NCBI RefSeq assembly: GCF_025685545.1 | Contig: NZ_JAGSYC010000022.1 | Span: 1-64,000 of the forward strand | Reading direction: 5' to 3' | Length of the DNA: 64,000 nucleotides | Origin: Granulicella paludicola | GTDB taxonomy: Bacteria > Acidobacteriota > Terriglobia > Terriglobales > Acidobacteriaceae | Shown here: piece after piece, positions 13,606 through 36,916 of the stretch | Layout: every line of letters starts with the position of its first letter | Numbering within the stretch: position 1 is the first letter of the stretch | Made by a program: the position numbers and the translations under genes | Notes under the pieces: generated by a model | The model's database searches: none | What the model was told of the DNA's origin: nothing | What the model saw: only the letters and a program-made list of their open reading frames with translations

Positions 13606-14484
13606 CTACGGCTGCAACCGCTCGGAAATAGAAATGATAGTCTCGATCAATGTGGCAACTGGCCTAACACAAGGACCGGTCAAGGTTACACCGCATTCCA
13701 ACGAGATCTCGCGAGAGGCCAAGTTCATATTGGAAGAACCTATATAGGCTCGATCCCTATCCGACAGCACGACCTTTGCGTGAAACGTCTCTATCGCGAG
13801 ACTCTCCTTCGTTGGTCGTGGAATCGCATAACTGAATAGCTGAGAGTTGTTGCTACTAAAGTATGCCCTTCGTCGGGAGAGAAGAGTTCTGACCCTCTCT
13901 TCGGCAGCACGAACGATCAAGACACGCTGTACTGAACTCGCTGTGGTATCGAATAGACTAGCAATCCAGTCCAACCCAGGATCATCTACGAAGGGCGAAA
14001 CGACGACCAATCTCTTGGAAGCACGACTTGCAAGATCAACCAGGTTATCTTTCGTATCGTCAAGACCAGCCCATGCGAAACCCTGCCTCGGAAGGTGCTC
14101 CATCAACTTGGACGGCCGCGATGGAGGGCTGAGTGTGACATCGACTTGATTTGTGTCTTTATGAGAGTGTCGAGCGTACGCGTAACCTTCGAGAAACGCT
14201 GCCTTTTCTTCAGCCTCAACGGAACTCAATGTGAGTCGAAGACCCGAAGGCTCCTCCTTGACGATGTGGATTGAAGTGAATGCCTTTAAGATTCCTCGAA
14301 GTTGTTCTCCAAACAGATTCGCCTCTCGTGCGATGTCTTCAATGAGTTCGTGACTTTGTGTCGATGGTGACAACCTACTCCAAGCGTCCAGCAGCCTCGA
14401 AGCACCGATCGGATTGAAGGACAGAGCATCTGCGACCGCTGAATTAGGGATATTGGATCGCTGTGCGGTACGCAAAACATTCAT
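13606..14484 (-). CDS. drmC: DrmC-like phospholipase D protein (DISARM)
   Basis: The 292-residue product has one PLD active-site motif, FHAKVVLSDRDRAYIGSSNM at about residues 234-253 (HxK, D, then GSxN), and an upstream domain with a conserved DDPGLDW segment. Single-HKD PLD proteins of this size are DrmC, the third core DISARM component; its exact role in restriction is not settled. The ATG at 14484 is chosen because it overlaps the DrmB stop (ATGA). An upstream ATG at 14571 would extend into drmB. It is the last gene of the five-gene operon. Confidence 0.8.
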   Translation of the reverse strand: MNVLRTAQRSNIPNSAVADALSFNPIGASRLLDAWSRLSPSTQSHELIEDIAREANLFGEQLRGILKAFTSIHIVKEEPSGLRLTLSSVEAEEKAAFLEGYAYARHSHKDTNQVDVTLSPPSRPSKLMEHLPRQGFAWAGLDDTKDNLVDLASRASKRLVVVSPFVDDPGLDWIASLFDTTASSVQRVLIVRAAEERVRTLLSRRRAYFSSNNSQLFSYAIPRPTKESLAIETFHAKVVLSDRDRAYIGSSNMNLASREISLECGVTLTGPCVRPVATLIETIISISERLQP

Positions 14485-16604
14485 GTCCGTTGACTCCGGA
14501 AATAGCCTTGAATGGGTGACTTTACTGTGTCCCACCCAGGTGCTGAGCCTCCGCGCAGCGTAGAACGGCATAATAAGTTATTCCCCGCCAGACAAGAAAC
14601 TTCGGGCGACATGATGCAGGCTGGACAAGCCGCACCTCGTTGATCGCATAAACTCCCGCTGTCACACCGCAACTTTCTGTCCGATAAGAGCTCTTCGAGA
14701 ATTGTCGTTCCGTGATTTCGCCACATGGCCGATAGATTTCCCAAGTCTGGAGTCATGCCGCGTCGGTAGACAAGGAATGAGAGATCCGCAGGGAAAATGT
14801 ATTCACCGAGTGACCCTTGCTCAAGGCCAGAGTATTCAACAAGAGCCTGGGCGAAATGGTGAGCAAACGTATGTAGCAGGAGATAGATATAACTGGTGCG
14901 CGTCCTCGGGACACTCGATTCCGAGCTTCGTTCTTTGTAGTCCTCTAAGAACGGACCAAAATCTTGGTATTCGGTAAGATAGGCGCCTCCGACACGACCA
15001 GGTCCGCCTGTGAATGGTGAGGCGAGGCCGTTCGATTCAAGCCACGCCACGACCCGGGCTTCGTTCAAACGAACATAAAATGCCTCGTTTTTCTGCTCTA
15101 GGACGTAGATCGGCCTCTTGTTCCGGTCAACGGCCTCAAATGCCTTGAGGCGAACCGGCATGTCCAAGTCTTTCTCTTTGGTTACTGGCGTTGAACTGAC
15201 CCTGGTGTATCCAAAGCTGAACTCACAGATGTCCAGTCCGCGGAGAAGAACCACGTCGTCTACACCCAACTGACCGAAAGCCCGTGTGACAAAGGCCGAA
15301 TATTGCTGTCTTGCGGACGTATCATCTTCGTCAATGAAGCACGTTTCAGGATTCTTCACCGAGATCGCCGGCAGGGTGGGGTCGGTGCCTTCACGACTGA
15401 TACTCTCACTTACCAATGAGGCGTGCTCCACTGTTAAGCGAATAGGATTGTACCGGCGGGCCCAGGACTGACTGTTAAGTACTTGGCCTATAAGGATAGG
15501 AGAATCAACCCTCTGTTTTGCGATAAGGCCGGAAGATTGAAATTGATCATTCTTCTCAGCCAAAACTTTTTCGAGTGCGGCACGCCTATGTTCTTGGAGT
15601 CCGGGGATCGTCAAGATACCAAGCAATTGTTCATATTCATCTGCTTCATTTGCACGCCCATTCGCGCGTAACTGCCGCACAATCTCATCATGCGAAAGGG
15701 CGGTCCCTGGAAAGTCAAACGCAGTCATGATCTGAGCGACCAGATCCGCGCGGCGACTGGCAGTCAAGACACCCGTGGATTCAGAACTGTTGAAGATGAT
15801 GAAGGTCTCGCGTTGGGTGTAATGCACGGACGATGCACGGTAGGAGACCGGCAACATATTCCACTCACGCTTTTGATTTCCCAGTCCATCCACGTGTCCC
15901 TGCCATAGCAGTTCTAAAGTTTCGCGGTCTTCCCGGACTATCTCTTTGGCTGTAAGACACTTGGTGCACTGAAATGCCCAGTCACCAAAAAAGGATGAGC
16001 CATTCTTAAGAAGCCGGTATTCTTCGTTGTCACAGGCTTTGCATCTGGCTACCGAGTTAACACGCCGGTTGGCATCGACTAGGAACCTTGAAGGACTCAA
16101 CCCAGCATAATTACCAGACCAATGAGCGAAGACGACATCGAGTTGTCGGAAACGATGTGACTTGGATGATGATTTTGGACAGTCGACTCGTTTCGTCTCG
16201 AATTTCCAACGGCGTTCCAAATCTACGACGTCCTTGAACTCTGTCACAAGTCCGCATTCTGCACAGCTAAACACCAACGGGTCCGGCATGAAGCCGATGC
16301 GTGAGGGTTCTGTCAGTACGAATCTGTCTGAATCGACACGAGGCTCCATCTTGTAATCAAGAAAGACGTCCTCTAGACACTGCTGTGGAAGTACTGGTGG
16401 TTGCTGACGGCACGAACTCGCACGTTCGAACCAGTTCGAGACGAACTCATCTAGAATCTCGAACAGTTGGCGCGGAACTGCCGGAGACTTCACTGTGTAC
16501 GGAGCTGCTTTCGGGATAGAGACGCAGCATCCAAGGCCACCTTCATAAGTGAACAGCGAGCCGGGCGAATAAGACGTCGTGATTTGCGTTTTAGATCTGT
16601 TCAT
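14481..16604 (-). CDS. drmB: DrmB-like DUF1998 protein (DISARM)
   Basis: A 707-residue protein. The C-terminal quarter is a DUF1998 domain: LLLHTFAHHFAQALVEYSGL, then a Cys cluster (CDSGSLCDQ, CPACIMSPEVSC) ending NNLLCRSTLRGG. More zinc-binding pairs lie in the N-terminal half (CAECG, CKACDN, CTKC). DrmB works with the helicase DrmA; together they bind and are thought to process unmodified DNA, with DrmA-DrmB forming the DISARM core. It begins six bases after the drmA stop and overlaps drmC by four bases. Length fits the family. Confidence 0.85.
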   Translation of the reverse strand: MNRSKTQITTSYSPGSLFTYEGGLGCCVSIPKAAPYTVKSPAVPRQLFEILDEFVSNWFERASSCRQQPPVLPQQCLEDVFLDYKMEPRVDSDRFVLTEPSRIGFMPDPLVFSCAECGLVTEFKDVVDLERRWKFETKRVDCPKSSSKSHRFRQLDVVFAHWSGNYAGLSPSRFLVDANRRVNSVARCKACDNEEYRLLKNGSSFFGDWAFQCTKCLTAKEIVREDRETLELLWQGHVDGLGNQKREWNMLPVSYRASSVHYTQRETFIIFNSSESTGVLTASRRADLVAQIMTAFDFPGTALSHDEIVRQLRANGRANEADEYEQLLGILTIPGLQEHRRAALEKVLAEKNDQFQSSGLIAKQRVDSPILIGQVLNSQSWARRYNPIRLTVEHASLVSESISREGTDPTLPAISVKNPETCFIDEDDTSARQQYSAFVTRAFGQLGVDDVVLLRGLDICEFSFGYTRVSSTPVTKEKDLDMPVRLKAFEAVDRNKRPIYVLEQKNEAFYVRLNEARVVAWLESNGLASPFTGGPGRVGGAYLTEYQDFGPFLEDYKERSSESSVPRTRTSYIYLLLHTFAHHFAQALVEYSGLEQGSLGEYIFPADLSFLVYRRGMTPDLGNLSAMWRNHGTTILEELLSDRKLRCDSGSLCDQRGAACPACIMSPEVSCLAGNNLLCRSTLRGGSAPGWDTVKSPIQGYFRSQRT

Positions 16605-16610
16605 CGGTCT

Positions 16611-19600
16611 CTAATCCTCGTCGTCGTCCAATTCAGCTACTCGACCGTTCTGATTTCTCACGATTCTCAGCGCGGCTCGCAGTACTTTCTTCTCGTCATC
16701 AGTCTTTGATTTAGGACCGTATTCTCGGGACAACACGAATCTAGCAGCCTCGTCAATATCGCGAAGCGAGGTCATTGGCGGTCTAGCAAAACCTGGCATC
16801 TGCCAGTACTCGCTCAATCTCGTAGTTGTATACAAACGTCGAAACTCATCAATCAGTTGCTTAGCTTGATTCCTCATGCGGCTTTCGTAAAAGTCCGGAC
16901 GTTGCGATGAGCCAATCTTTGAAAATCCTCTTCCGTGCACACCGATCGCAGACACAGCGAAGTCCATGAAGTCGTTTACCGCCCTTGGATAGTCGTTCTG
17001 AGTGAGAAGACGATTGACATCATTTACTGTCTGGAAGGTGAGGGTGCGGTCTTTATCTGTATCCTTTGCGTTTACAAACAAGTACTGCTCAACCCACCCG
17101 CATAGCCATGCCTGGAACAGGCTTGCAAGGATGCGATCATGTGCTGCTGCCGCCCATCGTGTGATTGCTGGCGGAGCAATCATCCGCTCAAGGAATCGGT
17201 GGAAGATGTCGTGAGTCTCAACTATGTAGCGGTCACGTCGGGCATGAGGAGTAGGAATCAGCAGGCAAAATCCCACGTGAGACCTACCCACGCGTGACGA
17301 TGCTTGGATGAACTCTGCGATGTCCGTAGGCATACCAGCGAAGAACATTGCATTAAACTTGTCAACGTCTACGCCGTGCGAAATGGCCGAAGTAGCGACG
17401 ATGCTTCTCAGTGTTGCGTCCAAGTCTGGAAAATCATCTCCAGGTTGCTGCGATCCCTGCGCCGCACGCATGATCTGCTGAATCTCTGCAACGTCTACTC
17501 CTCCGGATATCAGTTCGGTCTGCAGTTGCAGGAGAGGCCTCGCGTAAGCGGTGTGCATCTTCACTACTTCATCCCGAAACGCATCGATGACCTGGTCGCC
17601 ACCCTTCTTGTTGGTGACGTATGTCAGTGAAATTCGCATGAGATCGAGAAGGGTTGCGAGGAGGTCCGTGCTGTGGTGTGCAATTTCGCGGATAGCTTCT
17701 TGCTGAAAATGCGCGAGGTTGCTTGGGCCTACGTTATCAATCAGGCGTTTTATTGCCGCGTCTCGATTCGTGCCGCTCTGGAGATCTGTCCACAACTCCG
17801 TGATGGCGAGGTGGTAAGCGGAAAGAACATTCACGGTCGTGACAGTATGCGTCCTTCCATTCGTCATCAGCGAGACGTAAAGCCGCATCCAGGGAGAAGC
17901 AAGCTCGGGCTTCATGGGACTGTTCCCACCAATACCGCGGCGTGACGCTTGCGTAGCCTCTGCCGGCCGGGAGTAAAAAGACTCATAGATAGAGGTGCCA
18001 GGATAAGGAAAGTGAGCGTGGCGTCGCTGGTAGAGCGCCCCGAACTGCTGCTGTGGAACGCTGACGGTCGCTGTGGCGGCGATGACTTTAGGAAGTCTTG
18101 GTTTGTTTTGCGCGAAAGGCTGACGAGCAACACGTGAGCCTAGAAGTTTGGATGTTCTATTGAAAAGTTCTTCCAACAGGGTCTCAAAGAGTCCTGCGAA
18201 CGTGCCCAAGCTTTCTTCGAGCAAGTGTGCCTCGTCTTGAATGATCAGGGATGGAAAAGGGTCAACAAAAAGCTCAGATCCACGCGAGAACGATGGGCAA
18301 ACTTCTTCGCATCCGCTCGGCGCCGCGCCGTCTCGAAGCTCTTCTCTTTTGGGGGAAACAATTCGAGGGGTTCCTTGTTCAACCCATTTGGCAAGGCCGA
18401 ACATGCCCATTACTCTGTTTATCGTGCTCGGGTGTTGGCCGATGAGCGCTAGCTTGTCGATTACGCCAAGGATTACCGATGGCGCATGACGATAGATATC
18501 CGAGTCTACGATCAGGAACGGCAGCGGCTGCCAAGAAGTCGTCTTGTTCCATTGACAATCGGGATTAAAGCAGACAATTGCGATCTCTTTTGCGGTGCGG
18601 TATTTTAACCGGCGCAGTCCGGTCATCCACCCGCAGCTCGGGCAATTTGCTACCTTGTTGAAGCTCTTATTGACTTCGTCATACTCTGTTGTGGCCGATG
18701 AGTCGGAACTGTACTTCCCCAAGACGGCATCTGGCACCGGATCAAGCTTGTCGTCATCTGCTCGGTTTGGCGTGTTTCCGTTTCCGACCCAAAAACCGAT
18801 TTCGAACGGTTGACCATCGAGATGTTCATGCCTTCGTATGTACTCTGCCTGGATGAGAATAGCTAATAGTCGTTGGGCCTGCTGTAGGGTGAGGAGTCGC
18901 AGGGGGTATCGCAACAGGGCGGTAACACCAAATTTCTTGCCTCTTAGGCGATCAAGAAAGAGATTGAAAATCAGGAGTCCGAAAAAAGCTTCAGATTTAC
19001 CTCCACCCGTTGGGAAGTAGAGCAGCGTCGCCGTTTCTTCATCGAACTCGAGATTGAACCATTCTGAATTAGCGAACTCGGGCATGCGTGATGCAAGTGT
19101 GGGGATGTGAGCAAGGATGAAAGCCAACTGAAAGAGGCGCCAAGATTCGATACCCTTCGCTTTTCCGGCGCTCTCAAACGTTCTGTTCAGTAGCAACCAC
19201 GCTCGATATGGGATAGCTTCACGACTACTAGGATTATCTTGAAATTTTGCGGCGGAGGTTTCTAGCAGCCGGATACCCAGATTGATCCTTTCGACTTCCC
19301 GCTCGTACTTCGTGAGGTCATCATGGAAACGGCGTCGCTCCCGGTCCGCACTCTCTGCGTCGTCCGTCCCTTCAGCAGGATCTAGGGTCGTCTGCTGCTC
19401 TTGAATCCACGACTGATATGCGGTGGTCAGTGCATGGAGCGAGGCCGGATCGAAGCCGCTCTGACCGAGCTCTGCAAAATTTGTGGGAAGTCCAGGGACT
19501 GCGGTGGGAACGATCCGGGGTTGGACGTATCTGGGCATCCATGTCGTGTGAAGGCTCAGAGTGTCGTGGTCAGAGTCTGTGGCGGAAGATACTCCACAGT

Positions 19601-20855
19601 TAACACCAATGGCGGCATAGGAGAGAAAGTTCCGGAATCTGTAGGACGGTTCGACGCGATCAAGTTTAAGCGGCCTGTGAATTCGTGTAGGTAGTGAAAC
19701 AGCGATTGATACTTGATGAATGGCGTGCTCATATCGATCACTCTGCCTGCTAGGAGCGTCAGTAGCATTATTCTCAAGGAGGATTCGTACGTTCTTTCTC
19801 CCAGCATCTCTGAGGTCTGCGGCGATCTCGACGTAGAGGCGAACATCGGTGAGATTGGGGAGAATGTCACTGAGGACAACCGGAGTCTTGCGGAGGTTAA
19901 TAAGAAAAAGATTCCAATCTCCTTGCGATCGAAAATTACTCGGCAAGATCTTCGCAGGCCTGTAGCCCCAGTCTGCACCATACGGTGTTGCAAGCCATTG
20001 TGAGACGGCGTGGGCGACCGTCTTCGGCAAAGCCATGGACCAGATATCAGCCGCTCTTTGAGCACTCTCATTCGATAACGTCTCGATGACGCAAGGCTCT
20101 AACGGGATGTCGATTCTCTGCCACTTTTCCGGAACGTCTACTGACTGCGCCGAGGCGTCCGTGTCGAATGTGTATGAGCCGCGATTGGCTTCTAGTCTCT
20201 CGGGGCCGTCGGCATTAGCTGAATCTTCCGATGTCGTAGGGTTTTCGGCGGACGAGAGTTGGCTGTCCTGTCCTTGTGGTGTTCGATCTGGATTTTCCGT
20301 CAAAATCTCGTTGGGTGCAACACGAACTCCCTGCAGAGCCAGTAAAGCGCGATAGATTTCTTGTTTAAGAGTCCGGAGGTTTCTGCGGTCCGACTCCTTT
20401 TTCAATTTGTCCTCATCGCGTGCTATCTGAATGCGAGCTCGCGTCTCGGTCGTTACGGCAAGTTCGACGGATTTCTTAAGATTCGGTCTAGGGTAGATGC
20501 CATTAGCTTCCGTATGCAGTTCAACCCAAGACGGCAGGGCGCGAATGTAGATTGCGAAGCGAGGAGCAATCGTTATCTTTTCGGAAGCAGTGCTTGAAAT
20601 CTGGAAATCCAAGCCGTGCGTGCTCAGATGAATGTCGGATGTCTCATCCTCCCCTGAGCTCTCGAATCGGGGCAGAAGAAACCCTGAAACAAACTTCATG
20701 GAGGGCTTAGCGCCGAAGACGACTTCTCCATCAACTCCGGTGCCACTAACACGCTGCCATGTGAGGTTCAGAAGCGCGTCAGTAATACCCTCTTTGGCAT
20801 CGGTAAGGCGTTTCTGGAGAGCGTCAGGCTGCTTTTGTAGGTCTGCTATTTTCAT
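16611..20855 (-). CDS. drmA: DrmA-like helicase (DISARM)
   Basis: A 1414-residue superfamily 2 helicase. Walker A is FPTGGGKSEA near residue 615, the DEAH box is IIQDEAHLLEES near 872, motif III-like ATATVS follows, and the C-terminal helicase lobe has VATSAISHGVDVDKFNAMFF and IQASSRVGRS near 1187. A zinc-binding segment (CPSCGW, then CFNPDC) sits between the lobes. Large size, DEAH motif and the DUF1998 partner immediately downstream identify DrmA. ATP-driven DNA translocation is its expected role. It overlaps the preceding 872-residue gene by ATGA. All key motifs appear intact. Confidence 0.87.
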   Translation of the reverse strand: MKIADLQKQPDALQKRLTDAKEGITDALLNLTWQRVSGTGVDGEVVFGAKPSMKFVSGFLLPRFESSGEDETSDIHLSTHGLDFQISSTASEKITIAPRFAIYIRALPSWVELHTEANGIYPRPNLKKSVELAVTTETRARIQIARDEDKLKKESDRRNLRTLKQEIYRALLALQGVRVAPNEILTENPDRTPQGQDSQLSSAENPTTSEDSANADGPERLEANRGSYTFDTDASAQSVDVPEKWQRIDIPLEPCVIETLSNESAQRAADIWSMALPKTVAHAVSQWLATPYGADWGYRPAKILPSNFRSQGDWNLFLINLRKTPVVLSDILPNLTDVRLYVEIAADLRDAGRKNVRILLENNATDAPSRQSDRYEHAIHQVSIAVSLPTRIHRPLKLDRVEPSYRFRNFLSYAAIGVNCGVSSATDSDHDTLSLHTTWMPRYVQPRIVPTAVPGLPTNFAELGQSGFDPASLHALTTAYQSWIQEQQTTLDPAEGTDDAESADRERRRFHDDLTKYEREVERINLGIRLLETSAAKFQDNPSSREAIPYRAWLLLNRTFESAGKAKGIESWRLFQLAFILAHIPTLASRMPEFANSEWFNLEFDEETATLLYFPTGGGKSEAFFGLLIFNLFLDRLRGKKFGVTALLRYPLRLLTLQQAQRLLAILIQAEYIRRHEHLDGQPFEIGFWVGNGNTPNRADDDKLDPVPDAVLGKYSSDSSATTEYDEVNKSFNKVANCPSCGWMTGLRRLKYRTAKEIAIVCFNPDCQWNKTTSWQPLPFLIVDSDIYRHAPSVILGVIDKLALIGQHPSTINRVMGMFGLAKWVEQGTPRIVSPKREELRDGAAPSGCEEVCPSFSRGSELFVDPFPSLIIQDEAHLLEESLGTFAGLFETLLEELFNRTSKLLGSRVARQPFAQNKPRLPKVIAATATVSVPQQQFGALYQRRHAHFPYPGTSIYESFYSRPAEATQASRRGIGGNSPMKPELASPWMRLYVSLMTNGRTHTVTTVNVLSAYHLAITELWTDLQSGTNRDAAIKRLIDNVGPSNLAHFQQEAIREIAHHSTDLLATLLDLMRISLTYVTNKKGGDQVIDAFRDEVVKMHTAYARPLLQLQTELISGGVDVAEIQQIMRAAQGSQQPGDDFPDLDATLRSIVATSAISHGVDVDKFNAMFFAGMPTDIAEFIQASSRVGRSHVGFCLLIPTPHARRDRYIVETHDIFHRFLERMIAPPAITRWAAAAHDRILASLFQAWLCGWVEQYLFVNAKDTDKDRTLTFQTVNDVNRLLTQNDYPRAVNDFMDFAVSAIGVHGRGFSKIGSSQRPDFYESRMRNQAKQLIDEFRRLYTTTRLSEYWQMPGFARPPMTSLRDIDEAARFVLSREYGPKSKTDDEKKVLRAALRIVRNQNGRVAELDDDED

Positions 20856-23470
20856 CCGATAGCCTCATTAGATATAACCGTTTCGACGTATTCTTCCGCT
20901 GTCTGTGCAACCCTCCACAAGTCAACGGCTGAGATTTGAGGTAAGCGCGACGCAACGGATTCCGGGTCGATTAAGGTTGTCATCAAGAGTTGGTGTATGA
21001 AGTTGCCACTCTTGATTCGTGCTGACCGGGTGCCGAAGACTCCGTCTTCCCATAACAAATTGGCTAAGAAGTCTGAAACATTCAACGCGCGCATGAGGAG
21101 ATCATAGTGTTCTTTCTTGCCGGGGGCGTGTGGGCGCACTTGGTCCCTTGGCAGAGCGAGCAACTTTTCGACCTCTATCCAACGGCGTAGAGTCGCAAGT
21201 GACGGAAGGTCAGCATTGGGATCGAGATCGAGTATCCGGTCGCGCAAGGCGACGGCCTTATCGTTTAGATCACTTCCCGAGAGATTAGCGGCTGCCTTGG
21301 AAACCGTCTTGTGATACTCCGCAAGAAAATCTGTAGCATGAGCGGAGAGTTTCAGAATCTCCTTAACGTTTTCGACAAGCTCCGGTAGAAAAAGACAGAT
21401 CTCGTCGCCTACCCGAATATTTCGCGCTGGGAGTTTGTGCCACGGATGTGAGATGTCGCCTTCGAACACCGGAATCTCCGAACCGTCGAAAACCCTGATG
21501 ATAATTCCGCTGGACAGTGTGATTGCGCGAGTTTGTCCTGTTCCAGAGTTCTCATAACGATCAGTGAAATCCGACATCCCACGACGAACAGGACGGACTT
21601 CATTCCTGAGATCGTCGATATCGCTGAGATGAGTCGAAACGCCGTTCATGAGTGCCGATTCAATCGGGAGGAGAACCTGGGCAAACGGATGCGGCTTTGC
21701 GAGTTCAAGAGCAATCTTGAGCTCTCTGCAAAGCTGTTCCGCACTTGCATGATTGCTGATGATGGAAATTACGGTTACGGGTTCAGACTCTCCGAGAACT
21801 CTAAGAAGTATCCCTAGATAAGGCTCGAAGAAGATCAGGCGAGAGTATCCGTCGGGCTTGTTCCTCGGCAAAGCATCTTTCGTTGAGAATAAAGTGATGC
21901 GTTCGGGGCTCATTCTCACATCGAACAGAAAAGGGTCATTCTTGATTCGCCATAGCGCAAAGTCACGGGATAGCGCATTGGGCATGGCTATGTGCAGTCT
22001 CTCGCTTTTCGAAATGGCGCGCCGCAAACAGTTGTCGAAACGCCCCCTAGCTGGGTGTGATTTTTCAAGCGCGGCGATGATCGCATCAAAAGTCTTGGCG
22101 AACTGCTTGATCTGGTCTTGGAAGGCGCCCCCAGCTCCGTGGTCAATGGCATGCAGCAGTCGCGCCCGCGCCGCGACGTGGTCATACTTCGCTCCAATTC
22201 GTTCGAGACGTGCGCCTTCATATAGTGAATGCAGGAACTGAGACAGTGAGCGGGGCTCCCCAGGCAACGCGAGTAGTCTCCGTAAGACATTGCATGTATT
22301 TGCAACAGCATCAACGAGTTCTCCCTCTCCGGCCAGAATCAGTTGACGCCTGAGACGCAGCCCTTCCTCGATGGCTCTGAGACCATCTGTGCCAAATACC
22401 TGTGCGTCGACTTTTGGTACGAACGAAGGAAGAGGGATGGTGGGTGTTAGATCATCGCGCTGAAAGTTAAAAATGACCTTGAAATCGGACGGGGGTCTCC
22501 GAGTGCTGTAAGCCTCAGCTCGCAAGGAATCGTAGTCGTTTAGAAGTTGATAGCGGAGCTCTTGGATGACATACAGGTCGTCGCTAACGGCTAACACTGG
22601 AGGTGCATCCTCAACGTAGACGTTGATCAGATCATTCAGCAGTGTGTTTACTTGCTCCTTCCATCCGAGTTGGAGACTTCTCTTGCGCTTATCCGTCAGA
22701 TCCAGCAGAAGTACATCCGGGTGTCGCTTGCCTCGACGTGGAAACAAGTCCGAATCTCGTAGTTGCTTCTCAGTCCCATTGTCAGAACCAATTCCAATCA
22801 GAAGAAAGGGCGTCGTTGCGATGTCAACTGCCTCGATACTTTGTTTGGACCGATTAATCCAGGTGTACCGTCGAAGGCGTTCGAGGAATTTCTTGTCGTA
22901 GGTCTTGCTGCCGTCGGAGGGAATAAGCGCGTGCGGAAAAAGCTCATAGAGCGTTGGGTGCTGCAGCGCCTCATCGGCTAGGATTGCGGCCTTGAGAGTC
23001 GCACTTCGCTTGTTATGTTGAAAGACAGAATGCAAGCTCTGCAGCGCTAGCACAAATCGTGACCACGGTTGACGCTCACGCACGTTGATCTTTGCCAAAG
23101 GGCCTTGAATGCTGACGCAAAGCGATTCCCGATCTACGAGCACATCTTTCAGCGGAGAAAAACTATTTCTCGTGGCTGGAAATAGAAGACTGGTGAGGCC
23201 TTCGTCGGAACATCGTGGCAGCCTTTGTAGGCAGGCATAGGCATGAAGGGTGGCAAGACTGGAGAGACGTTCGGGAGCGATGTACAGGGCGACGCTCTTA
23301 CGCTCTGCGACGACGGCGTTCAATACTTCGAGCGCTTCCGAAGTATTGGTATTGATGCCGCAAGTGTTTCCTGGATCAGTATCGCGGCGCAGCGCACAAG
23401 TTTCTAACGGCTCCACAGCCGGGAGGGAGGAGTAGGAGCGCGCAGCCGTTTTGCTATCGAACGCAGTCAT
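20852..23470 (-). CDS. 872-residue DISARM-operon protein, possibly DrmE-like
   Basis: I see no Walker, methylase or nuclease motif. A beta-strand-rich region near residues 650-700 (ITLSSGIIIRVFDGSEIPVF, then RVGDEICLFLP) is followed by an all-helical C-terminal part containing LPSLATLRRWIEVEKLLALP. That arrangement is reminiscent of DrmE, the unknown-function protein of class 2 DISARM, but the match is by impression only. It lacks SNF2 motifs, so it is not DrmD. It is coupled by 4-base overlaps to the methylase upstream and to drmA downstream, which strongly implies a subunit or regulator of the same system. Confidence 0.6.
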   Translation of the reverse strand: MTAFDSKTAARSYSSLPAVEPLETCALRRDTDPGNTCGINTNTSEALEVLNAVVAERKSVALYIAPERLSSLATLHAYACLQRLPRCSDEGLTSLLFPATRNSFSPLKDVLVDRESLCVSIQGPLAKINVRERQPWSRFVLALQSLHSVFQHNKRSATLKAAILADEALQHPTLYELFPHALIPSDGSKTYDKKFLERLRRYTWINRSKQSIEAVDIATTPFLLIGIGSDNGTEKQLRDSDLFPRRGKRHPDVLLLDLTDKRKRSLQLGWKEQVNTLLNDLINVYVEDAPPVLAVSDDLYVIQELRYQLLNDYDSLRAEAYSTRRPPSDFKVIFNFQRDDLTPTIPLPSFVPKVDAQVFGTDGLRAIEEGLRLRRQLILAGEGELVDAVANTCNVLRRLLALPGEPRSLSQFLHSLYEGARLERIGAKYDHVAARARLLHAIDHGAGGAFQDQIKQFAKTFDAIIAALEKSHPARGRFDNCLRRAISKSERLHIAMPNALSRDFALWRIKNDPFLFDVRMSPERITLFSTKDALPRNKPDGYSRLIFFEPYLGILLRVLGESEPVTVISIISNHASAEQLCRELKIALELAKPHPFAQVLLPIESALMNGVSTHLSDIDDLRNEVRPVRRGMSDFTDRYENSGTGQTRAITLSSGIIIRVFDGSEIPVFEGDISHPWHKLPARNIRVGDEICLFLPELVENVKEILKLSAHATDFLAEYHKTVSKAAANLSGSDLNDKAVALRDRILDLDPNADLPSLATLRRWIEVEKLLALPRDQVRPHAPGKKEHYDLLMRALNVSDFLANLLWEDGVFGTRSARIKSGNFIHQLLMTTLIDPESVASRLPQISAVDLWRVAQTAEEYVETVISNEAIG

Positions 23471-25242
23471 CGCTCTTCTCCAGCCACTGGGGAAATTGGC
23501 GGAACGGTTGCTGCTTTCATCGTGAGTGCATAAGCCGTATCTGCTGCCCGATCGTCGTCTTTACTCCCAGCGAACGCAACTTTGACCTGTGAGTGCGACG
23601 GCAGAGGCAGAACTTTCAAGGCGCTTACCGAAACGCTGACCGTACCGCTGATCCGACGAAAGCGGGAGTCAACCGCTTCGGTGTTCAAAAGACGACAGAG
23701 CACCGTGAGGCTTATCTTTTGGGCAGTATCTGGGCGGGGTAAAACAAGCAAAGTGTGATTCTCGGAGACAAAGCCCTTTCCCCCAGGAACAGACGATTGG
23801 CGCACGACCGCAGCGATAAGCCGCCTTCTTTGGCGACTGTTGCTGGTTCGCTGCATGATGATGGCATCCGTTGTAACTACGGCGGGGCTGTCCTGCCCTA
23901 TTGCCGCGAAGCCAATCTTTTGCTTCTTGTCCGCATTGCCATCGACAAGAGGCTTGCAGGCTGCATTGGCTTTGATGTTGTGGGCCCAATAGAGAGGGAC
24001 TTCGCTACGTCTTGCACAGCTTCCGACGCGGTAGCGGTCTTGCTCCCTATTCCAAACAAAATAACCAGTTTTGACAACGTAGCCGTAGTCCTCCAATGAC
24101 TCGCAGGCAGAATCAAAGAAGGATTCTTGGTGCAAGGCATTCGGTAACGCCCAAATCCGCTCGGACGGCTCAGTAGGAACGTCAAGGTTGCCTAAAAGTT
24201 TCGCGGGTTCGCAGAGCTTAAGCAGTGAGCTGGTAGGAACGTGCGCTGGTCTCTTCGTCCCGTGTTTTCTCAGTGTGAGCACGCAAACGTCACAAAGAAC
24301 ATCCATGAAGAGTTCGCTGCGCTGTTCGATGGGGTCAAGGCTAATTATTGAACTTTCGCTGAGAAGGAACTTTCTAAGCGCGGAAAAATATGGCCCTCCG
24401 AGAAACGACATAGGAACGATAAGGCAGACCAGTCCTCCAGGCACAGCCCATCTGAGTGCTTGGCGCGCAAAGAGCGCGTATTGATTGACATGACCATCTG
24501 TGATGACCTCTTTGAACTCGTCCAGCAATGTGGCAGGTGCGCGAAATACTCTTCCGTATGGTGGGTTAACAATGACTGCGTCGAACACCGGTTTCGCGCG
24601 AAGCGCCAGGGTGTCTCGCTGTTTGATCGCTGGCTTAAGGCGCTTGCTCGTTCTAGCTGTCTCATTCTTGAGAACGTCTCGCAGAAGAAGTTTCGATAAG
24701 GCCGCTAAATCCGGTTCAATCTCGATACCGGCAATTGTCTTGTTGACAGCACCGACGATTTGACGAGCATTTGCGCCCGCATCCTTCTTCAGTCTAGAAA
24801 TGCTAGCGGCCAATGGAACGAGAAAAGCTGCTCCACCGGAGGCCGGGTCGAGGATTCGGTGCTGCCCCAGAACGATGCCGTTATCGGTAAGCACTTTGAG
24901 GGCATGCTTAGCCAGATGCGGTGGTGTGAAATAGGCAGAAAGCTTTCTTCTCCGATCGGTAGGCATGAGGAGTGCATAAAGGCTGGCAAGCCAATAGTGG
25001 CGCTCCTCGCTGGGCAGCGTATCAAAGAATTGACCAAGGCCTCGATCATGCGAGGTTCCATTTATGAGATCTTTGCAAATCTGGAGAGGAAGGACTCCAG
25101 ATTTCTTGGCGCTAGCTGCTAAGCGCCTTAGCGTCGGAACACGACTCGCTGTAGCGTCGCTCAACACCGCCTCGGTAGTGGTAACTCCAGATCGCACACA
25201 ACCTCTTCCGAGCGCTGATCGCTCGCACGTGCAGACGAGCAT
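23467..25242 (-). CDS. N6-adenine DNA methylase of the DISARM-like operon
   Basis: The 591-residue product has the class gamma layout: a motif X-like LSAYFTPPHLAKHAL at about 101, motif I LDPASGGAAFLVPLA at about 131, and motif IV VNPPYG at about 225. A target-recognition region with TGYFVWNREQDRYRVG follows, as in Eco57I-type enzymes. It would mark host DNA so the DrmAB machinery spares it. DISARM DrmMI enzymes are also adenine methylases but are often considerably longer. It is the first gene of the operon; the start at 25242 is the first in frame and could be a little downstream. Confidence 0.82.
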   Translation of the reverse strand: MLVCTCERSALGRGCVRSGVTTTEAVLSDATASRVPTLRRLAASAKKSGVLPLQICKDLINGTSHDRGLGQFFDTLPSEERHYWLASLYALLMPTDRRRKLSAYFTPPHLAKHALKVLTDNGIVLGQHRILDPASGGAAFLVPLAASISRLKKDAGANARQIVGAVNKTIAGIEIEPDLAALSKLLLRDVLKNETARTSKRLKPAIKQRDTLALRAKPVFDAVIVNPPYGRVFRAPATLLDEFKEVITDGHVNQYALFARQALRWAVPGGLVCLIVPMSFLGGPYFSALRKFLLSESSIISLDPIEQRSELFMDVLCDVCVLTLRKHGTKRPAHVPTSSLLKLCEPAKLLGNLDVPTEPSERIWALPNALHQESFFDSACESLEDYGYVVKTGYFVWNREQDRYRVGSCARRSEVPLYWAHNIKANAACKPLVDGNADKKQKIGFAAIGQDSPAVVTTDAIIMQRTSNSRQRRRLIAAVVRQSSVPGGKGFVSENHTLLVLPRPDTAQKISLTVLCRLLNTEAVDSRFRRISGTVSVSVSALKVLPLPSHSQVKVAFAGSKDDDRAADTAYALTMKAATVPPISPVAGEER

Positions 25243-26447: not shown

Positions 26448-29219
26448 CTATAACGCAAGCCCAAGACCATTGCTTGCGACGGTCGTCTGATTCTTTTCGA
26501 GTGTAAGAATGAGCGCGGGTTTGAGGGCGCTCCCAACTTCAACAGCGGACGCTTTGCTCACATCTCGGCTAAGGGATTCGGCGAGTGTGGTCGCATTATT
26601 CGTAAAGATTTGAGCGTCGAACGAAGCCCGTGAAACCGAAACATACGCAAAACGGCTGTTGATGAGTTCTGGGTGAACTTGCGTATCCATGTTCACGAGG
26701 ACCCGCTCCGATGTAAGCCCCTGAGAGCTATGGGAGGTAACGGCATACCCATGGTCGAAATGTCTCATCTCGTGTGGATCGAAGGTGATCGTTTTCTTGA
26801 CGCCGTCCATGCTCACCGTGATGCGTCCGTCGTCCCCAAACCGCAGAATGGTGCCGAGATCGCGGTTCGCAACACCAAGCTCGCGATTCGGTGCGGTCAG
26901 TTGTATCCGGTCTCCGATAGCAAAATCACGTTCGATTTCTCGGTAGGCAGAGATTCCACGTAGCCGCGCAGGATCGTAGGTGGCGAGTTCGCCGTCGGGC
27001 TTCCGAACCGTTACGAGATTGTCTTTGGGAACTGTTGCCACAACCTGCGCGTAACTGCCAGCCTCGATGCCGTTCTCTCTACTCCCTCGGGTGTAATGAA
27101 GAACATCGCCGGGTTCGTACCGTGCTGCCCAAGCCCGATCCGCACCCGTCATGTCCGAGCGTGGAGTGAGCACGCGGATCGAGCGATCTTCCTTATCCAG
27201 CAATCCAACCTCCTGCAACTCACGACGAACCTCTTGATTCAAGGCTCGTCGCGAGGCGTTGTCCGGCGACACGATGATGGTGTTCTCAGGATGGGCGGCA
27301 TAGGACTTCGCGATGGCCGAGATTCGTTGTTCTGCCTCGGCGATTTCGGTGACGCGCCCCTGCTGTTGCAGCATCCGAACGCCCACCTCAGTTTCGTTTT
27401 TCGAGAGATGTTCGACTGCCTTCAGAAGCTCGGGGTCTTGTTGACGAACGATGTGGTCTAGTAGAGCACTCCGCATTCCTGATTCTTGCAGCTGCTCGAA
27501 CGGTTTTCCGGCATCCACGCCTTGGTGCTGCCGGACGTCGCCGATCAGAAGAACCTTGTCGTCGGTGCCGATTTTTCTCAGAAAATCGCGCATCTGCTCC
27601 GTCGAAGCGAGCGACGATTCATCGACCATATAAAGATGCTTTTGCGAAGGGTCATTCGTATTTCGAGGCCGGGCGATGAAGCCCTGTAAAGTGTCGGCGG
27701 TTATGCCTGCTTCTCTAAGCTGGTGCGCCGCGCGGGAGGTAGGCGCAAAACCCTCCACAGAGTACCCATTCTGTTCTGCGCCCTGACGTATAACGGCCAG
27801 GGTGCTGGTCTTCCCGCTACCCGCGCTTCCCTGCAAACCCTGGACTTGATCGCGGGAGGTGAGTATCTGTTCGATCGCTTTCCGCTGGGTGTCATTCAAT
27901 CGCTGGTGAGCATCCGTGAGAGGAATCGCATCCTGAATCGACATGAGCTGGGGCGCTTGTCCTTGACCCTCCCGAACGGAGCGGAGAATCTCTTTCTCCG
28001 CCTGAATGGTTCCTTCCGTTGTGAAGTGCCGGCCTGTCGAATGCTTGCTCCCATTCACTTCGCGGAACTCGCCAGAGGCAACGCGGGTTTCGAAATTGGC
28101 GCGAACTTCCGGGTAGGTCATTTCACCCATGCCGCGACGCATGGCGTCTACGAAGATAGCTCGCTCGTCTAGCACTGCCTCACGCTCGAAGCCTTTGTCA
28201 CGGGCGAAGGTCAGCGCTGAGCTAGCCTGCTGGGTTCGTTGTTCAAGTGAACTTTGATGGGCTTTACTTTTCCGTCTTGATTGCGCTTCCGCGACGACGG
28301 TTTCCGCCTGGTTCCCATATTCGGCGGCGATCTGGCGATGTGCCGCAACGACCTCAGCAGGTGACAGTATCTGCTTTCCATCGCGTGTGTTGTGTGCCGC
28401 AATCTGAGCGGCTTCCGGGCCTGAATAGCCGCTGCGTGCGACGGCCTCCACGATCTGCTGCCGCCGCGGGCTGGAGGCATCAAGATACTCCTGTGAATAG
28501 CCTTTTATGTCGGGCGCGCCGCTCCGCCCTGGCTCGATCTCATACCCCAGCGAACGGAGTTGATAGGTCAGATGGGATTGGTAGACGGCAGTTGCGAACT
28601 GCTGGGTTTCGAACAGACTGCGCGGTTGCAGCGCGCGCATGGTTCCATCCTCGCGCTCTGTCATATTGAAGATCACCGAATGGGTGTGAAGCTGCGGCGC
28701 GGCATATCCGTCGACCGGGCGAGCGGTGTCATGCTCAAAAGTGGCGGCAACGAATCGCCCGGTGGATTCGGGGGCATGGTTGCCGCCGATGCGGGCCTGC
28801 GTATAGTGCTCCAGTTCGCTAAGAGCGAAGGCAACGGCCCTACGGTGTGCCTCGCGAACCTCGTCATCGCCGCCCACGAGAGCTGTCAGAGAAACAGATT
28901 TCGGCGCAGAGAAGGTAGCGTCCCAACCGGCACGATGCTCGACGGGCGTAACGGTCCGCCCGTCGTCCGTCTTGTATTCATGGGCGACACGATGCTGCAC
29001 GAGCTGTTCGCCGGTCGCAGGATGTTGGCCTTCGGCCAAGCGGGAAAACTCCAAGGCACCCACCCCGCCAGAGAGGCCAAACTCCTCGGCTAGCTTGCCA
29101 CGCCATTCCCCTTGGATGGTGTCTCCCTGCTTCCAATAATTCTGCTCTGCGGCGGTGAACTCTTTGGCGTGATAAGTCTGAGCCTGAGTAGAAGAAAGCG
29201 GTTTAGATATCGTCAGCAT
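26448..29219 (-). CDS. MOB-F conjugative relaxase (TrwC/TraI type)
   Basis: A 923-residue relaxase-helicase. The N-terminal TrwC domain has a candidate catalytic Tyr near residue 17, a second Tyr near 28, and the metal-binding HUH-type motif APQLHTHSVIFNMT at about 174. The C-terminal SF1 helicase has Walker A GLQGSAGSGKTSTL at about 466 and a DExx-like MVDESSLAS. It nicks oriT, stays covalently bound to the strand and unwinds the element for transfer. It is the last gene of a set with the coupling protein (nine bases upstream) and a small relaxosome protein. Length is typical. Confidence 0.93.
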   Translation of the reverse strand: MLTISKPLSSTQAQTYHAKEFTAAEQNYWKQGDTIQGEWRGKLAEEFGLSGGVGALEFSRLAEGQHPATGEQLVQHRVAHEYKTDDGRTVTPVEHRAGWDATFSAPKSVSLTALVGGDDEVREAHRRAVAFALSELEHYTQARIGGNHAPESTGRFVAATFEHDTARPVDGYAAPQLHTHSVIFNMTEREDGTMRALQPRSLFETQQFATAVYQSHLTYQLRSLGYEIEPGRSGAPDIKGYSQEYLDASSPRRQQIVEAVARSGYSGPEAAQIAAHNTRDGKQILSPAEVVAAHRQIAAEYGNQAETVVAEAQSRRKSKAHQSSLEQRTQQASSALTFARDKGFEREAVLDERAIFVDAMRRGMGEMTYPEVRANFETRVASGEFREVNGSKHSTGRHFTTEGTIQAEKEILRSVREGQGQAPQLMSIQDAIPLTDAHQRLNDTQRKAIEQILTSRDQVQGLQGSAGSGKTSTLAVIRQGAEQNGYSVEGFAPTSRAAHQLREAGITADTLQGFIARPRNTNDPSQKHLYMVDESSLASTEQMRDFLRKIGTDDKVLLIGDVRQHQGVDAGKPFEQLQESGMRSALLDHIVRQQDPELLKAVEHLSKNETEVGVRMLQQQGRVTEIAEAEQRISAIAKSYAAHPENTIIVSPDNASRRALNQEVRRELQEVGLLDKEDRSIRVLTPRSDMTGADRAWAARYEPGDVLHYTRGSRENGIEAGSYAQVVATVPKDNLVTVRKPDGELATYDPARLRGISAYREIERDFAIGDRIQLTAPNRELGVANRDLGTILRFGDDGRITVSMDGVKKTITFDPHEMRHFDHGYAVTSHSSQGLTSERVLVNMDTQVHPELINSRFAYVSVSRASFDAQIFTNNATTLAESLSRDVSKASAVEVGSALKPALILTLEKNQTTVASNGLGLAL

Positions 29220-29228
29220 GGCGTCCTC

Positions 29229-31223
29229 TTATCCGCGTGTGATGAGGTTCTGAACATCGTCATCGGGAGTCAACGTAAACTCCGGCTCGATCTCCTCGAC
29301 CTCGGAGATTCCGTCAGAGGTTCTGGGCGAGGACGGTTCCGGCTCTTGCTTCAATTCAACCGGAACAGGATCGACACTGCCTGTCCGTTTGGGCTGGTAC
29401 GGCAACTTGTCGTCGGGGCGCTCGCGAGCCTCGAATCCATTCGCCACGACGGGCATGTCGAAGTACGGAAAGGAGAAGCGCGTGACATAGTTCTGGTACT
29501 TCATGAAGGCGTGCAGGTCTGCAAGGCCGGAGATTTCAGACTCCAAGACAAGCGGTTCCACCTGACGGTCAAGTTGGAAGTTCCGTCCTGCGCGGGTGCC
29601 ATCGAAGTGTGTCTCGCGCAGTCGCTCTACCTCTACTTTGCCGATGAATTCGCTCACCCACTGACCGGCCTTGGGCTCCTTCGTTGTGAGCCAAACACTG
29701 GTTGCTGGTTGGGACAGCATGACCTCCGCCATGTGGCCGTACAGGTATTCGAGCTGAGCCTTTCCTTGGAAGCCCAGCACCACAGGATTGCGGCTCTTTC
29801 GGGCTTCTGTGATGGCCGTGTGAAGCTGGGGCAACTTCTGCAGGCTCGCCAACTCGTCGATGACAAACCACACACGGCGCTGTGCCTCTTTGGGCTCGTT
29901 CAGGAGACGCAATACCAGCCAATCAATCCATAAGCTCTGAAGGGGACGAAGAGCTTCTCGCTCTGCTGGAAGAGACGTGAGAAATATCCATCCCTGCCGC
30001 TTCTCGGCCCACTCGGTGGCCGTCCACGATCCATTTCCTTCGCTCGACTTTGGCAAGAGGCGCAGGCTATCTGCGACCAGACCGAGAGACGCCAGCACAC
30101 CTGCTCTTTGTTGATGTGCGCGAGAGTCAATGAGGTGGGCGTGCTCGGTTCCTTTGAGCCTGCGGTCGATCTCCTCCGGGTTTGACATCCAGTCGATCAA
30201 CTCCTCCGGCGTCGGGCCGTAGGCCATGAGGAAGGCAAAAATCTTCTGCGGCGATTCGATGAAGAACTCGCCCTTTTTGTCCTGCGGTGGCTGGAATAAG
30301 GAAGCCGCAAGAGCCTTTGCTTCAGACCGGCTACGCAGTTCGTCAGCTGGCCCCCAATAGGGGCAGCGCTTGTCGAGCGGATTCAAAATGACATCGCCAC
30401 GCGAAGGGTTATAGAAGCGCTTTACGAACTCACGGGCGGGGTCATACACGATGGCTGCATCGCCCCGACTTTGGACTTGGCGGAGCACCTGAAACATCAG
30501 CGCGGACTTGCCAGCGCCGGTGTCCCCGATGATCTGCATATGCTGTGCCTCGGCACGCATGGGGATGCGGAGCATAGGCGTCATATCGTTCGTCTTGAAA
30601 CCGACTCCATCACCCTTCACAGTCTTGTTGAACTGCTGCGGCGTTAGCATCTCTGGGCCCTTGAGGCGGCGCCCATACTTCAACTGTTTCTGTCGCTGAA
30701 CATCCTTGAAACATGCGATCGGCAATAGGACCAGGAACAGAACTCCGCCGCCAAGAACGGGGGGCTCGAAGAATGCGAAGAGCGTCATCCCTTCGAAGAC
30801 GACACCCTTCAGATAAAGGCTGAACCGGGCATCCACGTAGCTCCTTGCGGGTGCCCGAAACAGGAGCGAACAGCTGCGATCGCGAGCGTCTGCGGACAGA
30901 GCGAGCGGTATGAGCTGGCCGCCCGAGTCCTCAGTCTTGCCGAGAACTACGTCATCGTTCATGGCGGGGCGCGGAGTGCTTCGCGCGCCACCCACGAAGA
31001 GCAGACGATAGGTGCTTTTGTGGCTCTTCATGACAGAGCCGAAAGCTGAGGACCGCTCGTAGGCGGATAGGCAATACCGTTGCAAGGGCGTCGCCAGATG
31101 GATGCGAACACAGACAGCGATGAAGGTCAGAAATGCGACACCAAAGGCTACTGCATATGTGAAGATCGGCATGTGGCGCGGCCAAATGACGGTCTCTTTT
31201 CGACCCCAAACAGTCTTTGCCAT
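29229..31223 (-). CDS. type IV coupling protein (TraD/VirD4 type)
   Basis: A 664-residue membrane ATPase. Two N-terminal hydrophobic segments (FTYAVAFGVAFLTFIAVCVR at about 21-40, VLFLVLLPIACF near 160) anchor it; Walker A is GDTGAGKSALMFQV near 236 and Walker B WFVIDELASL near 457. It links the relaxase-DNA complex to the secretion channel and pumps DNA. Immediate adjacency to the MOB-F relaxase matches TrwB/TraD pairs. It starts two bases after the stop of the small upstream gene, so all three form one operon. Confidence 0.9.
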   Translation of the reverse strand: MAKTVWGRKETVIWPRHMPIFTYAVAFGVAFLTFIAVCVRIHLATPLQRYCLSAYERSSAFGSVMKSHKSTYRLLFVGGARSTPRPAMNDDVVLGKTEDSGGQLIPLALSADARDRSCSLLFRAPARSYVDARFSLYLKGVVFEGMTLFAFFEPPVLGGGVLFLVLLPIACFKDVQRQKQLKYGRRLKGPEMLTPQQFNKTVKGDGVGFKTNDMTPMLRIPMRAEAQHMQIIGDTGAGKSALMFQVLRQVQSRGDAAIVYDPAREFVKRFYNPSRGDVILNPLDKRCPYWGPADELRSRSEAKALAASLFQPPQDKKGEFFIESPQKIFAFLMAYGPTPEELIDWMSNPEEIDRRLKGTEHAHLIDSRAHQQRAGVLASLGLVADSLRLLPKSSEGNGSWTATEWAEKRQGWIFLTSLPAEREALRPLQSLWIDWLVLRLLNEPKEAQRRVWFVIDELASLQKLPQLHTAITEARKSRNPVVLGFQGKAQLEYLYGHMAEVMLSQPATSVWLTTKEPKAGQWVSEFIGKVEVERLRETHFDGTRAGRNFQLDRQVEPLVLESEISGLADLHAFMKYQNYVTRFSFPYFDMPVVANGFEARERPDDKLPYQPKRTGSVDPVPVELKQEPEPSSPRTSDGISEVEEIEPEFTLTPDDDVQNLITRG

Positions 31224-31225
31224 AA

Positions 31226-31600: not shown

Positions 31601-31629
31601 CGTTCTTGCTCTCCATCTCCGAAAGCTCA

Positions 31630-31715: not shown

Positions 31716-31789
31716 TATCAGGGGTGGAGTGTCAATCTTCTTCCGGTGCGCAGCACCGTGACTGCTTTGGCTCTGATTCATACGGAGGC

Positions 31790-32116: not shown

Positions 32117-32138
32117 TGGGGTTCTCCTTCGGGGATGG

Positions 32139-33089: not shown

Positions 33090-33156
33090 TGCGAAACCTC
33101 AACGGTGTGGAAGCCCGGCGTGAGCCGAGCTTCCGGTGAAGGGGTAAGGAAACGGC

Positions 33157-35963: not shown

Positions 35964-35966
35964 GGT

Positions 35967-36887: not shown

Positions 36888-36916
36888 CTCAGTGCCCTCT
36901 CTTTGGAAATATGGAA

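What the first reader, a model, noticed from the sequence alone, without database searches (positions are those of the whole stretch)
13606..25242. Five-gene DISARM-like operon with a hybrid composition
All five genes lie on one strand; three of the four junctions are 4-base ATGA overlaps and the drmA-drmB gap is only six bases, a very tight operon. DrmA helicase (Walker A, DEAH, SSRVGRS), DrmB (DUF1998 Cys cluster) and DrmC (single HKD) are recognisable. Known class 1 DISARM adds an SNF2 helicase (DrmD) and an adenine methylase; class 2 adds DrmE and a cytosine methylase. Here an adenine methylase (NPPY) is combined with an 872-residue protein that has no SNF2 motifs. That pairing fits neither class and could be a distinct subtype carried by a transferable element.
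Basis: partly seen in the sequence, partly recalled or inferred. Interest (0 to 1): 0.85.

Follow-up and report, generated by a model that had tools for sequence, protein, structure and literature searches.

The report
Third lineage of DISARM phage defence
Five tightly packed genes on a self-transferring DNA element form a DISARM-type antiviral system that recurs in many other bacteria, and its one unknown protein looks like a very distant DrmE with the shape of a helicase that has lost its motor, so it is probably a distinct branch of a known defence family.

Summary
In detail: five minus-strand genes (13606-25242), three ATGA junctions, one 6-base gap. DrmA, DrmB, DrmC and an adenine-type methylase are recognisable; the first three score below NCBIfam's curated cut-offs.

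"Fits neither class" is partly right. The 872-residue protein matches no model, but a profile of 57 relatives matches four archaeal DrmE-type proteins (hhalign 98.3%, E 1.6e-14, 420 columns; controls at most 0.7%). I read it as a very divergent DrmE: a class 2-like system with an adenine instead of a cytosine methylase.

It is conserved. Among 85 loci chosen by DrmA similarity, the DrmE-like gene is in 79 (in the other six drmA lies at a contig edge) and the methylase in 78. On a DrmA tree the window and 22 relatives form one clade (support 100) beside DrmE-position systems, apart from class 1.

The DrmE-like protein is predicted to have a two-RecA SF2-helicase-like core without a Walker A motif. 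The operon is cargo of a conjugative element at tRNA-Thr. Five text searches found no paper naming this gene set. Phage defence is inferred, not shown.

The parts
23467..25242 (-). N6-adenine-type DNA methyltransferase, 591 aa (true start uncertain), NPPY at residues 226-229, C-terminal half a putative target-recognition region
   Evidence: Pfam Eco57I 6.6e-13 and N6_Mtase 2.1e-11; PADLOC MTase_II PDLC03338 5.3e-107; M.TaqI about 1e-5; NPP in 76 of 76 rows
20852..23470 (-). DrmE-like protein, 872 aa: predicted SF2-helicase-like core (about residues 25-595) without Walker A, then an intein(Hint)-like beta module with a helical insertion (about 634-872)
   Evidence: hhalign to DrmE-type proteins 98.3%, E 1.6e-14; AlphaFold2 pLDDT 87.9; fold matches; motif columns; ATGA overlaps on both sides
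16611..20855 (-). DrmA helicase, 1414 aa
   Evidence: NCBIfam DrmAS 5.6e-116; PADLOC DrmA 1.2e-93; the one PDB sequence match is DrmA 7s9v (profile E 2.4e-78); motifs conserved
14481..16604 (-). DrmB, 707 aa, with conserved cysteine pairs and a C-terminal Cys cluster
   Evidence: NCBIfam DrmB_fam 1.9e-11; PADLOC DrmB 3.8e-13; Cys columns
13606..14484 (-). DrmC, PLD-family protein with one HKD motif, 292 aa from the ATGA start
   Evidence: NCBIfam DISARM_DrmC_I 2.1e-12; PADLOC DrmC 6.1e-10; PLDc_2 3.4e-6; junction
44727..46073 (+). Tyrosine integrase of the carrier element, next to tRNA-Thr(CGT) at 46103-46178
   Evidence: Pfam Phage_integrase 7.2e-8; tRNA
46101..46147 (.). Putative att site: 47 bp of the tRNA-Thr 3' end, repeated exactly on contig C12:21418-21464, where no tRNA gene was found
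26448..42310 (-). Conjugation genes of the carrier: TrwC relaxase 26448-29219, TrwB/TraD-type coupling protein 29229-31223, RepB-type primase 32139-33089, VirB11-type 34041-35009, TrbI/VirB10 37733-39064, CagX/VirB9 39067-39906, VirB4-type 39941-42310
   Evidence: Pfam matches

Best explanation
This is a DISARM-type system of a distinct lineage: adenine methylase - DrmE-like - DrmA - DrmB - DrmC, carried as cargo by an integrative and conjugative element at tRNA-Thr. Shown by sequence: gene content, conserved catalytic motifs, the remote DrmE relationship, the single DrmA clade and the conjugative carrier. Inferred: the methylase marks host DNA at an adenine site; DrmA+DrmB load on incoming unmodified DNA (as reported for Serratia DrmAB), translocate and block it; the DrmE-like protein, an SF2-like core without a P-loop, does not hydrolyse ATP but binds DNA and/or DrmAB and helps decide what is attacked; DrmC is an optional nuclease.
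For: Model matches for DrmA, DrmB, DrmC and methylase. Conserved gene set: E in 79 of 85 loci, and in the six without E the drmA match begins 3-337 bases from a contig edge; methylase in 78 of 85; C in 63 of 85. Catalytic residues conserved. E-family profile to four archaeal DrmE-type proteins: 98.3%, E 1.6e-14, 420 columns, against 0.0-0.7% for four other families of the operon, reversed and column-shuffled profiles and 0.2% against two DrmD. DrmA tree: 23 rows of this lineage are one clade (SH-aLRT 100), inside a 34-row clade (100) with ten E-position rows and one other; class 1 separate (89). SF2-like fold of the E protein, with P in 51 of 51 and W in 50 of 51 rows where a P-loop would start. 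Carrier: relaxase, type IV secretion genes, integrase, 47-bp repeat.
Against: No phage or methylation experiment on this lineage in anything I saw. NCBIfam's DrmE model finds none of 14 members scanned (P0002, three, ten). The DrmE profile has only four sequences, chosen by NCBI label or model match. Six other E-position proteins gave weak hhalign values: Hymenobacter 35.4%, Rubrobacter 20.5%, Halobaculum 10.8%, Haloplanus 8.2%, Allocoleopsis 3.4%, Streptomyces 0.2%. The confident DrmE alignment covers columns 417-868, not the part where the P-loop would be. The DrmA tree is a quick search with long branches; the E-position rows are not one clade (Hymenobacter falls outside, Roseomonas, which has no such gene annotated before drmA, falls inside). 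DrmC was not found in 11 loci with room for it. The window's own protein has A65 where 50 of 51 rows have W. The survey took the 80 loci most like the window's DrmA, so the counts describe that neighbourhood.
Confidence: 0.75

Rival explanations
1. It is simply class 2 DISARM with fast-evolving proteins and a replaced methylase; no separate subtype is warranted.
For: DrmE relationship and DrmA placement beside E-position systems. Methylases vary in other E-position loci: cytosine type in Allocoleopsis, Halobacterium and Halorhabdus, a match to adenine-methylase models in Rubrobacter, an untyped one in Streptomyces, both a cytosine and a TaqI-like one in Halarchaeum. The Halarchaeum TaqI-like enzyme matches this methylase family over 305 columns at 97.3%.
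Against: The lineage's DrmA is one clade (support 100) on a long stem (1.4 changes per column), with the same methylase family in 78 of 85 loci whatever the gene order. The methylase does not match two cytosine enzymes of E-position loci (2.0% and 0.3%). NCBIfam's DrmE model does not find its E protein.
Confidence: 0.3
2. The 872-residue protein is a decayed DrmD (SNF2 helicase), so the system is a derived class 1.
For: The predicted core is a two-RecA SF2 fold, and SNF2 proteins (DDM1, ISWI, Snf2h, Chd1) are among the matches, level with RIG-I, Hef and XPF (Z about 10-11). Adenine methylation is class 1 chemistry.
Against: hhalign 0.2% to two DrmD against 98.3% to DrmE; but DrmA against DrmD also gave only 0.5%, so the negative is weak. 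The E gene stands directly before drmA, as in E-position systems; class 1 order is DrmD-methylase-drmA. DrmA lies outside class 1 on the tree. The methylase is not the large class 1 type.
Confidence: 0.04
3. The operon mainly guards against rival plasmids or conjugative elements, or serves its own carrier, rather than against phage, by the same DrmAB biochemistry.
For: It is cargo of a conjugative element here; of the seven plasmid loci of this lineage that were fetched, four are on plasmids typed conjugative. Passages of PMC9142583 cite DISARM protection against conjugation, and passages of PMC12458937 describe related systems on mobile elements.
Against: At least one related locus (L076) is in a record titled chromosome. 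Nothing in the sequence separates the two targets, and they are not exclusive.
Confidence: 0.12

Closest known systems
DISARM class 2 (DrmE, DrmMII; Ofir et al. 2018, definition recalled, paper not held)
   Same: DrmA, DrmB, DrmC; a DrmE-related protein directly before drmA; one methylase
   Different: DrmE not found by NCBIfam's model; adenine TaqI/Eco57I-like methylase instead of a cytosine one; own DrmA clade
DISARM class 1 (DrmD SNF2 helicase, DrmMI); DrmAB structure 7s9v
   Same: DrmA (profile E 2.4e-78 to 7s9v) and DrmB (0.1); adenine methylation expected
   Different: no DrmD; methylase less than half the size and matching only in the core; other gene order; DrmA outside the class 1 clade
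ARMADA (Bell et al. 2025 preprint, PMC12458937; abstract, introduction and passages seen)
   Same: YprA-type helicase together with an adenine-type methylase
   Different: ARMADA has a BrxHII/RapA-like helicase and a PglX-like methylase; the passages say that only DISARM consistently encodes the helicase and the DUF1998 part in separate genes, as here
SF2 helicases such as Hef, XPF, FANCM, RIG-I (fold of the DrmE-like protein only)
   Same: two RecA-like domains; XPF is, from recall, also a helicase-like domain without working ATPase motifs
   Different: about 7-10% identity; no nuclease domain; extra intein-like C-terminal module; likeness of fold, not shown homology

Membership tests
DISARM (core) | DrmA helicase with intact SF2 motifs | tested here: met
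   E 5.6e-116, though below NCBIfam's cut-off; motifs conserved in 85-86 rows
DISARM (core) | DrmB encoded separately next to drmA | tested here: met
   DrmB_fam 1.9e-11, below cut-off; a B-family ORF found in 80 of 85 loci
DISARM (core) | DrmC, PLD-type protein | tested here: met
   window: DISARM_DrmC_I 2.1e-12, below cut-off; 63 of 85 loci, a few weakly (L067 27 bits, L095 78 bits); not found in 11 loci with room
DISARM (core) | restriction of phages | not testable with these tools
   needs phage assays
DISARM class 1 | DrmD SNF2 helicase in the operon | tested here: not met
   no model match among the five proteins; hhalign 0.2% to two DrmD, a weak test
DISARM class 1 | large PglX-like DrmMI methylase | tested here: not met
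   591 aa; only 65-81 core columns match class 1 enzymes of 1308-1400 aa
DISARM class 2 | DrmE | tested here: met
   only as a remote relative: hhalign 98.3% over 420 columns to four archaeal DrmE-type proteins; not by NCBIfam's DrmE model in 14 of 14 scanned
DISARM class 2 | DrmMII cytosine methylase | tested here: not met
   the methylase is N6-adenine type (NPPY); 2.0% and 0.3% to two cytosine enzymes of E-position loci; no cytosine methylase among the five operon proteins
[quoted passage not shown]
   no such helicase among the five proteins; definition from passages of PMC12458937
Active SF2 helicase (the DrmE-like protein) | Walker A (P-loop) after the first core strand | tested here: not met
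   columns 58-76 show P66 in 51 of 51 and W65 in 50 of 51 rows; a P-loop-like string occurs in 5 of 51 rows, only elsewhere (own numbering 245-736); the place is inferred from strand order, not from superposition
SF2 fold (the DrmE-like protein) | two RecA-like domains | tested here: inconclusive
   Foldseek E 7.6e-7 but TM about 0.2; Z 11.2, rmsd 7.6-9.4 A over 344-383 residues; a predicted model, not a solved structure

The most novel reading that the evidence does not exclude
A third DISARM class in which an SF2 'pseudo-helicase' without a motor, with an intein-like C-terminal module, is the specificity or licensing subunit of DrmAB and works with an adenine mark; if the same holds for DrmE proteins at large, DrmE is a helicase relative that lost its motor.
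Probability: 0.42. Interest if true: 0.7.

Novelty: new variant of a known kind. Interest (0 to 1): 0.55.

Why it matters
Current models miss much of this system: its DrmA, DrmB and DrmC score below NCBIfam's cut-offs and its DrmE is invisible to NCBIfam's DrmE model. All 80 loci kept from one collection search carry a DrmA 38-61% identical to the window's (227 further related stretches were not examined), so a branch of DISARM may be lying among helicases and hypothetical proteins. The predicted motor-less SF2 core gives a concrete, testable idea of what a DrmE-type protein does.

Tried and rejected
DrmD/SNF2 origin of the 872-aa protein: no profile support; kept as a weak rival because the fold is SF2-like. 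Shield's ShdA in DISARM-like operons (PMC10270631, passages) as its identity: it has no Pfam match at all, so no RmuC match. Searches with the 872-aa protein found nothing in genome contigs, viral contigs or phages, so the survey used drmA; the DrmA search of viral contigs found nothing. In 399 genomes of the window's class only its own genome has a profile match; one weak hit of the single protein, G362 (E 1.7e-4, one stop inside), was not seen with the profile. NCBIfam's DrmE model in 297 genomes of the phylum: one hit, below the cut-off. tblastn with two E-position proteins (L016, L012) found only themselves in plasmids. A splicing role for the intein-like module was not pursued: Z at most 7.3, catalytic residues not checked. 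Rfam found only the tRNA. Five text searches found no paper naming this gene set; the original DISARM paper (PMC5739279) is not held, so the class 1 and class 2 definitions are partly recalled. Rows dropped: L036 and L053 as duplicates of L006 and L004; Afipia OM4 (H14) not fetched because its match coordinates equal those of OM5; the 5 of 79 E proteins of 860 aa or less were left out of the alignments; alignment A3 holds the window's protein plus 56 of the 74 long ones.
Full report
Observation. The junctions read directly show ATGA overlaps at 23470, 20855 and 14484 and a six-base gap between the drmA stop and the drmB start. The ORF list starts DrmC at 14571; the ATG at 14484 overlaps the drmB stop and is the likelier start. 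DrmA, DrmB and DrmC match PADLOC and NCBIfam DISARM models; in NCBIfam all three are well below the curated cut-offs. The methylase is an Eco57I/N6_Mtase protein with weak likeness to M.TaqI. The 872-aa protein matches nothing in the three libraries.

Is it conserved? tblastn in plasmids gave six records with a relative of the 872-aa protein (20-91% covered, 22-31% identity), and all six also hold a DrmA 39-42% identical to the window's at the neighbouring coordinates. Seven plasmid loci were fetched. A DrmA alignment found 307 related stretches in genome contigs, of which the best 80 were kept (38-61% identity). After removing two duplicates and adding the seven plasmid loci, 85 loci were scanned with iterated profiles. 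Presence: methylase+E+A+B+C 59; methylase+E+A+B 16; methylase+E+A 2; A+B+C 2; methylase+A+B+C 1; E+A+B 1; E+A+B+C 1; A alone 3. So E is in 79 of 85. In the other six (L027, L054, L070, L093, L096, L097) the DrmA match begins 3-337 bases from a contig edge, so the place of E is not visible. Methylase position: first in 63, after the core on the same strand in 11, inverted behind it in 4. A gene kept in company in all these positions is probably a working part. DrmC was not found in 17 loci that have E, A and B; five of these have under 1.7 kb left after drmB and one (L003) has a broken drmB, which leaves 11 informative ones; no HKD+GSxN string lay in the next 2.5 kb. A few of the 63 DrmC calls are weak. 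DrmC as dispensable agrees with passages of PMC9142583.

What is the 872-aa protein? NCBIfam's DrmE model finds none of 14 members scanned. In archaeal DISARM loci the gene before drmA is annotated DrmE family (L100, L101; L104 has it further upstream) or matches that model (L012). The profile of 57 relatives against these four gave probability 98.3%, E 1.6e-14 over 420 columns (profile columns 417-868); the four singly gave 40.5, 60.2, 83.1 and 96.0%. Controls: DrmA, DrmB, methylase and DrmC families against either profile, a reversed profile on either side and five column shuffles gave 0.0-0.7%. Six other E-position proteins gave 0.2-35.4%, so the relation to the E position of DISARM at large is not shown. 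Two DrmD gave 0.2%, but DrmA against DrmD also gave only 0.5%, so that negative is weak. I read the protein as a very divergent DrmE.

Fold. AlphaFold2 with 51 rows: pLDDT 87.9, pTM 0.69. Foldseek's best PDB matches are MDA5 and RIG-I (E 7.6e-7; FANCM 2.3e-5), with TM-scores of about 0.2. The second aligner puts Hef, DDM1, XPF and RIG-I at Z 11.2 (rmsd 7.6-9.4 A over 344-383 residues), spanning about residues 25-595. This is a statement about core fold only. After the first core strand, where a P-loop would begin, P66 is in 51 of 51 and W65 in 50 of 51 rows (the window has A); a P-loop-like string occurs in 5 of 51 rows, only elsewhere. Two later core strands end in D-[LA]-T and [TS]DD-like residues rather than DEAH and SAT; in Polaromonas L008 the latter place reads DEPH. 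These places are inferred from strand order. The protein is therefore probably motor-less. Of ten E-position proteins of other systems, nine also lack a P-loop-like string; Rubrobacter has one at residue 549. The last 283 residues, folded alone (pLDDT 89.9), have inteins or Hedgehog in the 13 highest rows (Z 5.1-7.3; Foldseek E 0.066 or worse), and an intein is also the best sequence match of the profile in the PDB (E 0.16). All of these are weak: a lead, not a result.

Class. On a DrmA tree of 43 rows (1102 columns, quick search) the window and 22 relatives form one clade with support 100, spanning Pseudomonadota, Acidobacteriota, Thermodesulfobacteriota and Ignavibacteriota. It lies in a 34-row clade (100) with ten E-position systems and one Roseomonas system; six class 1 DrmA are separate (89). 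Long branches and a stray row (Hymenobacter) limit this. The methylase family matches class 1 enzymes over 65-81 core columns only, but a TaqI-like enzyme of a Halarchaeum DISARM-like locus over 305 columns (97.3%); that locus also has a cytosine methylase. The methylase core and its C-terminal half diverge in step (median identity 33% and 32%, correlation 0.91 over 2925 pairs), which speaks against frequent swapping of the recognition part.

Carrier. The window's left 46 kb is a conjugative element: integrase beside tRNA-Thr, TrwC relaxase, coupling protein, primase and VirB4/9/10/11-type genes, with a sharp change of GC skew at the tRNA. A 47-bp exact repeat of the tRNA end lies on contig C12 (21418-21464), where no tRNA gene was found. 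It fits the other att site; the element would then span at least C23:1-46147 and C12:1-21464, but the joint is not seen.

How it works. Passages of PMC9142583 report that Serratia DrmAB binds ssDNA and 5'-overhang DNA and that its ATPase is lower on methylated DNA (tested with 5-methylcytosine). I infer the same here with an adenine mark, with E as a non-hydrolysing scaffold or recogniser and DrmC as an optional nuclease. None of this is shown for this lineage.

Literature. Five text searches found no paper naming this gene set; the single hit of the class 3 search was unrelated. Bell et al. (PMC12458937; outline with abstract, introduction and passages seen) write in a figure legend that the DISARM-like clade holds many uncharacterised DISARM-like classes, so this lineage may lie in their tree without a name. 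Supplements could not be read.

Noticed in passing
window 1-46147 and contig C12:1-21464 of the same genome: Integrative conjugative element at tRNA-Thr(CGT) with a 47-bp exact att-like repeat on another contig.
   Followed up: partly
window 20855-21580 (about residues 631-872 of the DrmE-like protein): Intein/Hedgehog (Hint)-like beta module closed by the last strand, with a helical part inserted; the 13 highest structural rows are Hint modules, but Z is at most 7.3.
   Followed up: partly
window 25410-26159, + strand: ImpB/MucB/SamB-type Y-family polymerase gene or fragment beside the operon on the other strand.
   Followed up: no
window 6552-9086, + strand: 844-aa ORF (TTG start) with no Pfam or PADLOC match.
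   Followed up: no
window 11359-12303, - strand: 314-aa protein with weak matches to orphan and type II methyltransferases (E 1e-4 to 1e-3), just beyond drmC.
   Followed up: no
L010, L015, L115 (plasmid loci): Further DrmA/DrmB-like pairs with other partners: sigma factor and cytosine methylase (L010), UvrD-type helicase with a DEAD/DEAH helicase (L015), UvrD-type helicase with NERD-helicase and a DarT-like gene (L115).
   Followed up: no
L003 (Sinorhizobium americanum plasmid) 13280-19087: drmB of this lineage is interrupted by IS66-type genes, so the system looks decayed there.
   Followed up: no
window 641-1804, + strand: IS481-type transposase (HTH plus integrase core) near the left end of the contig.
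   Followed up: no
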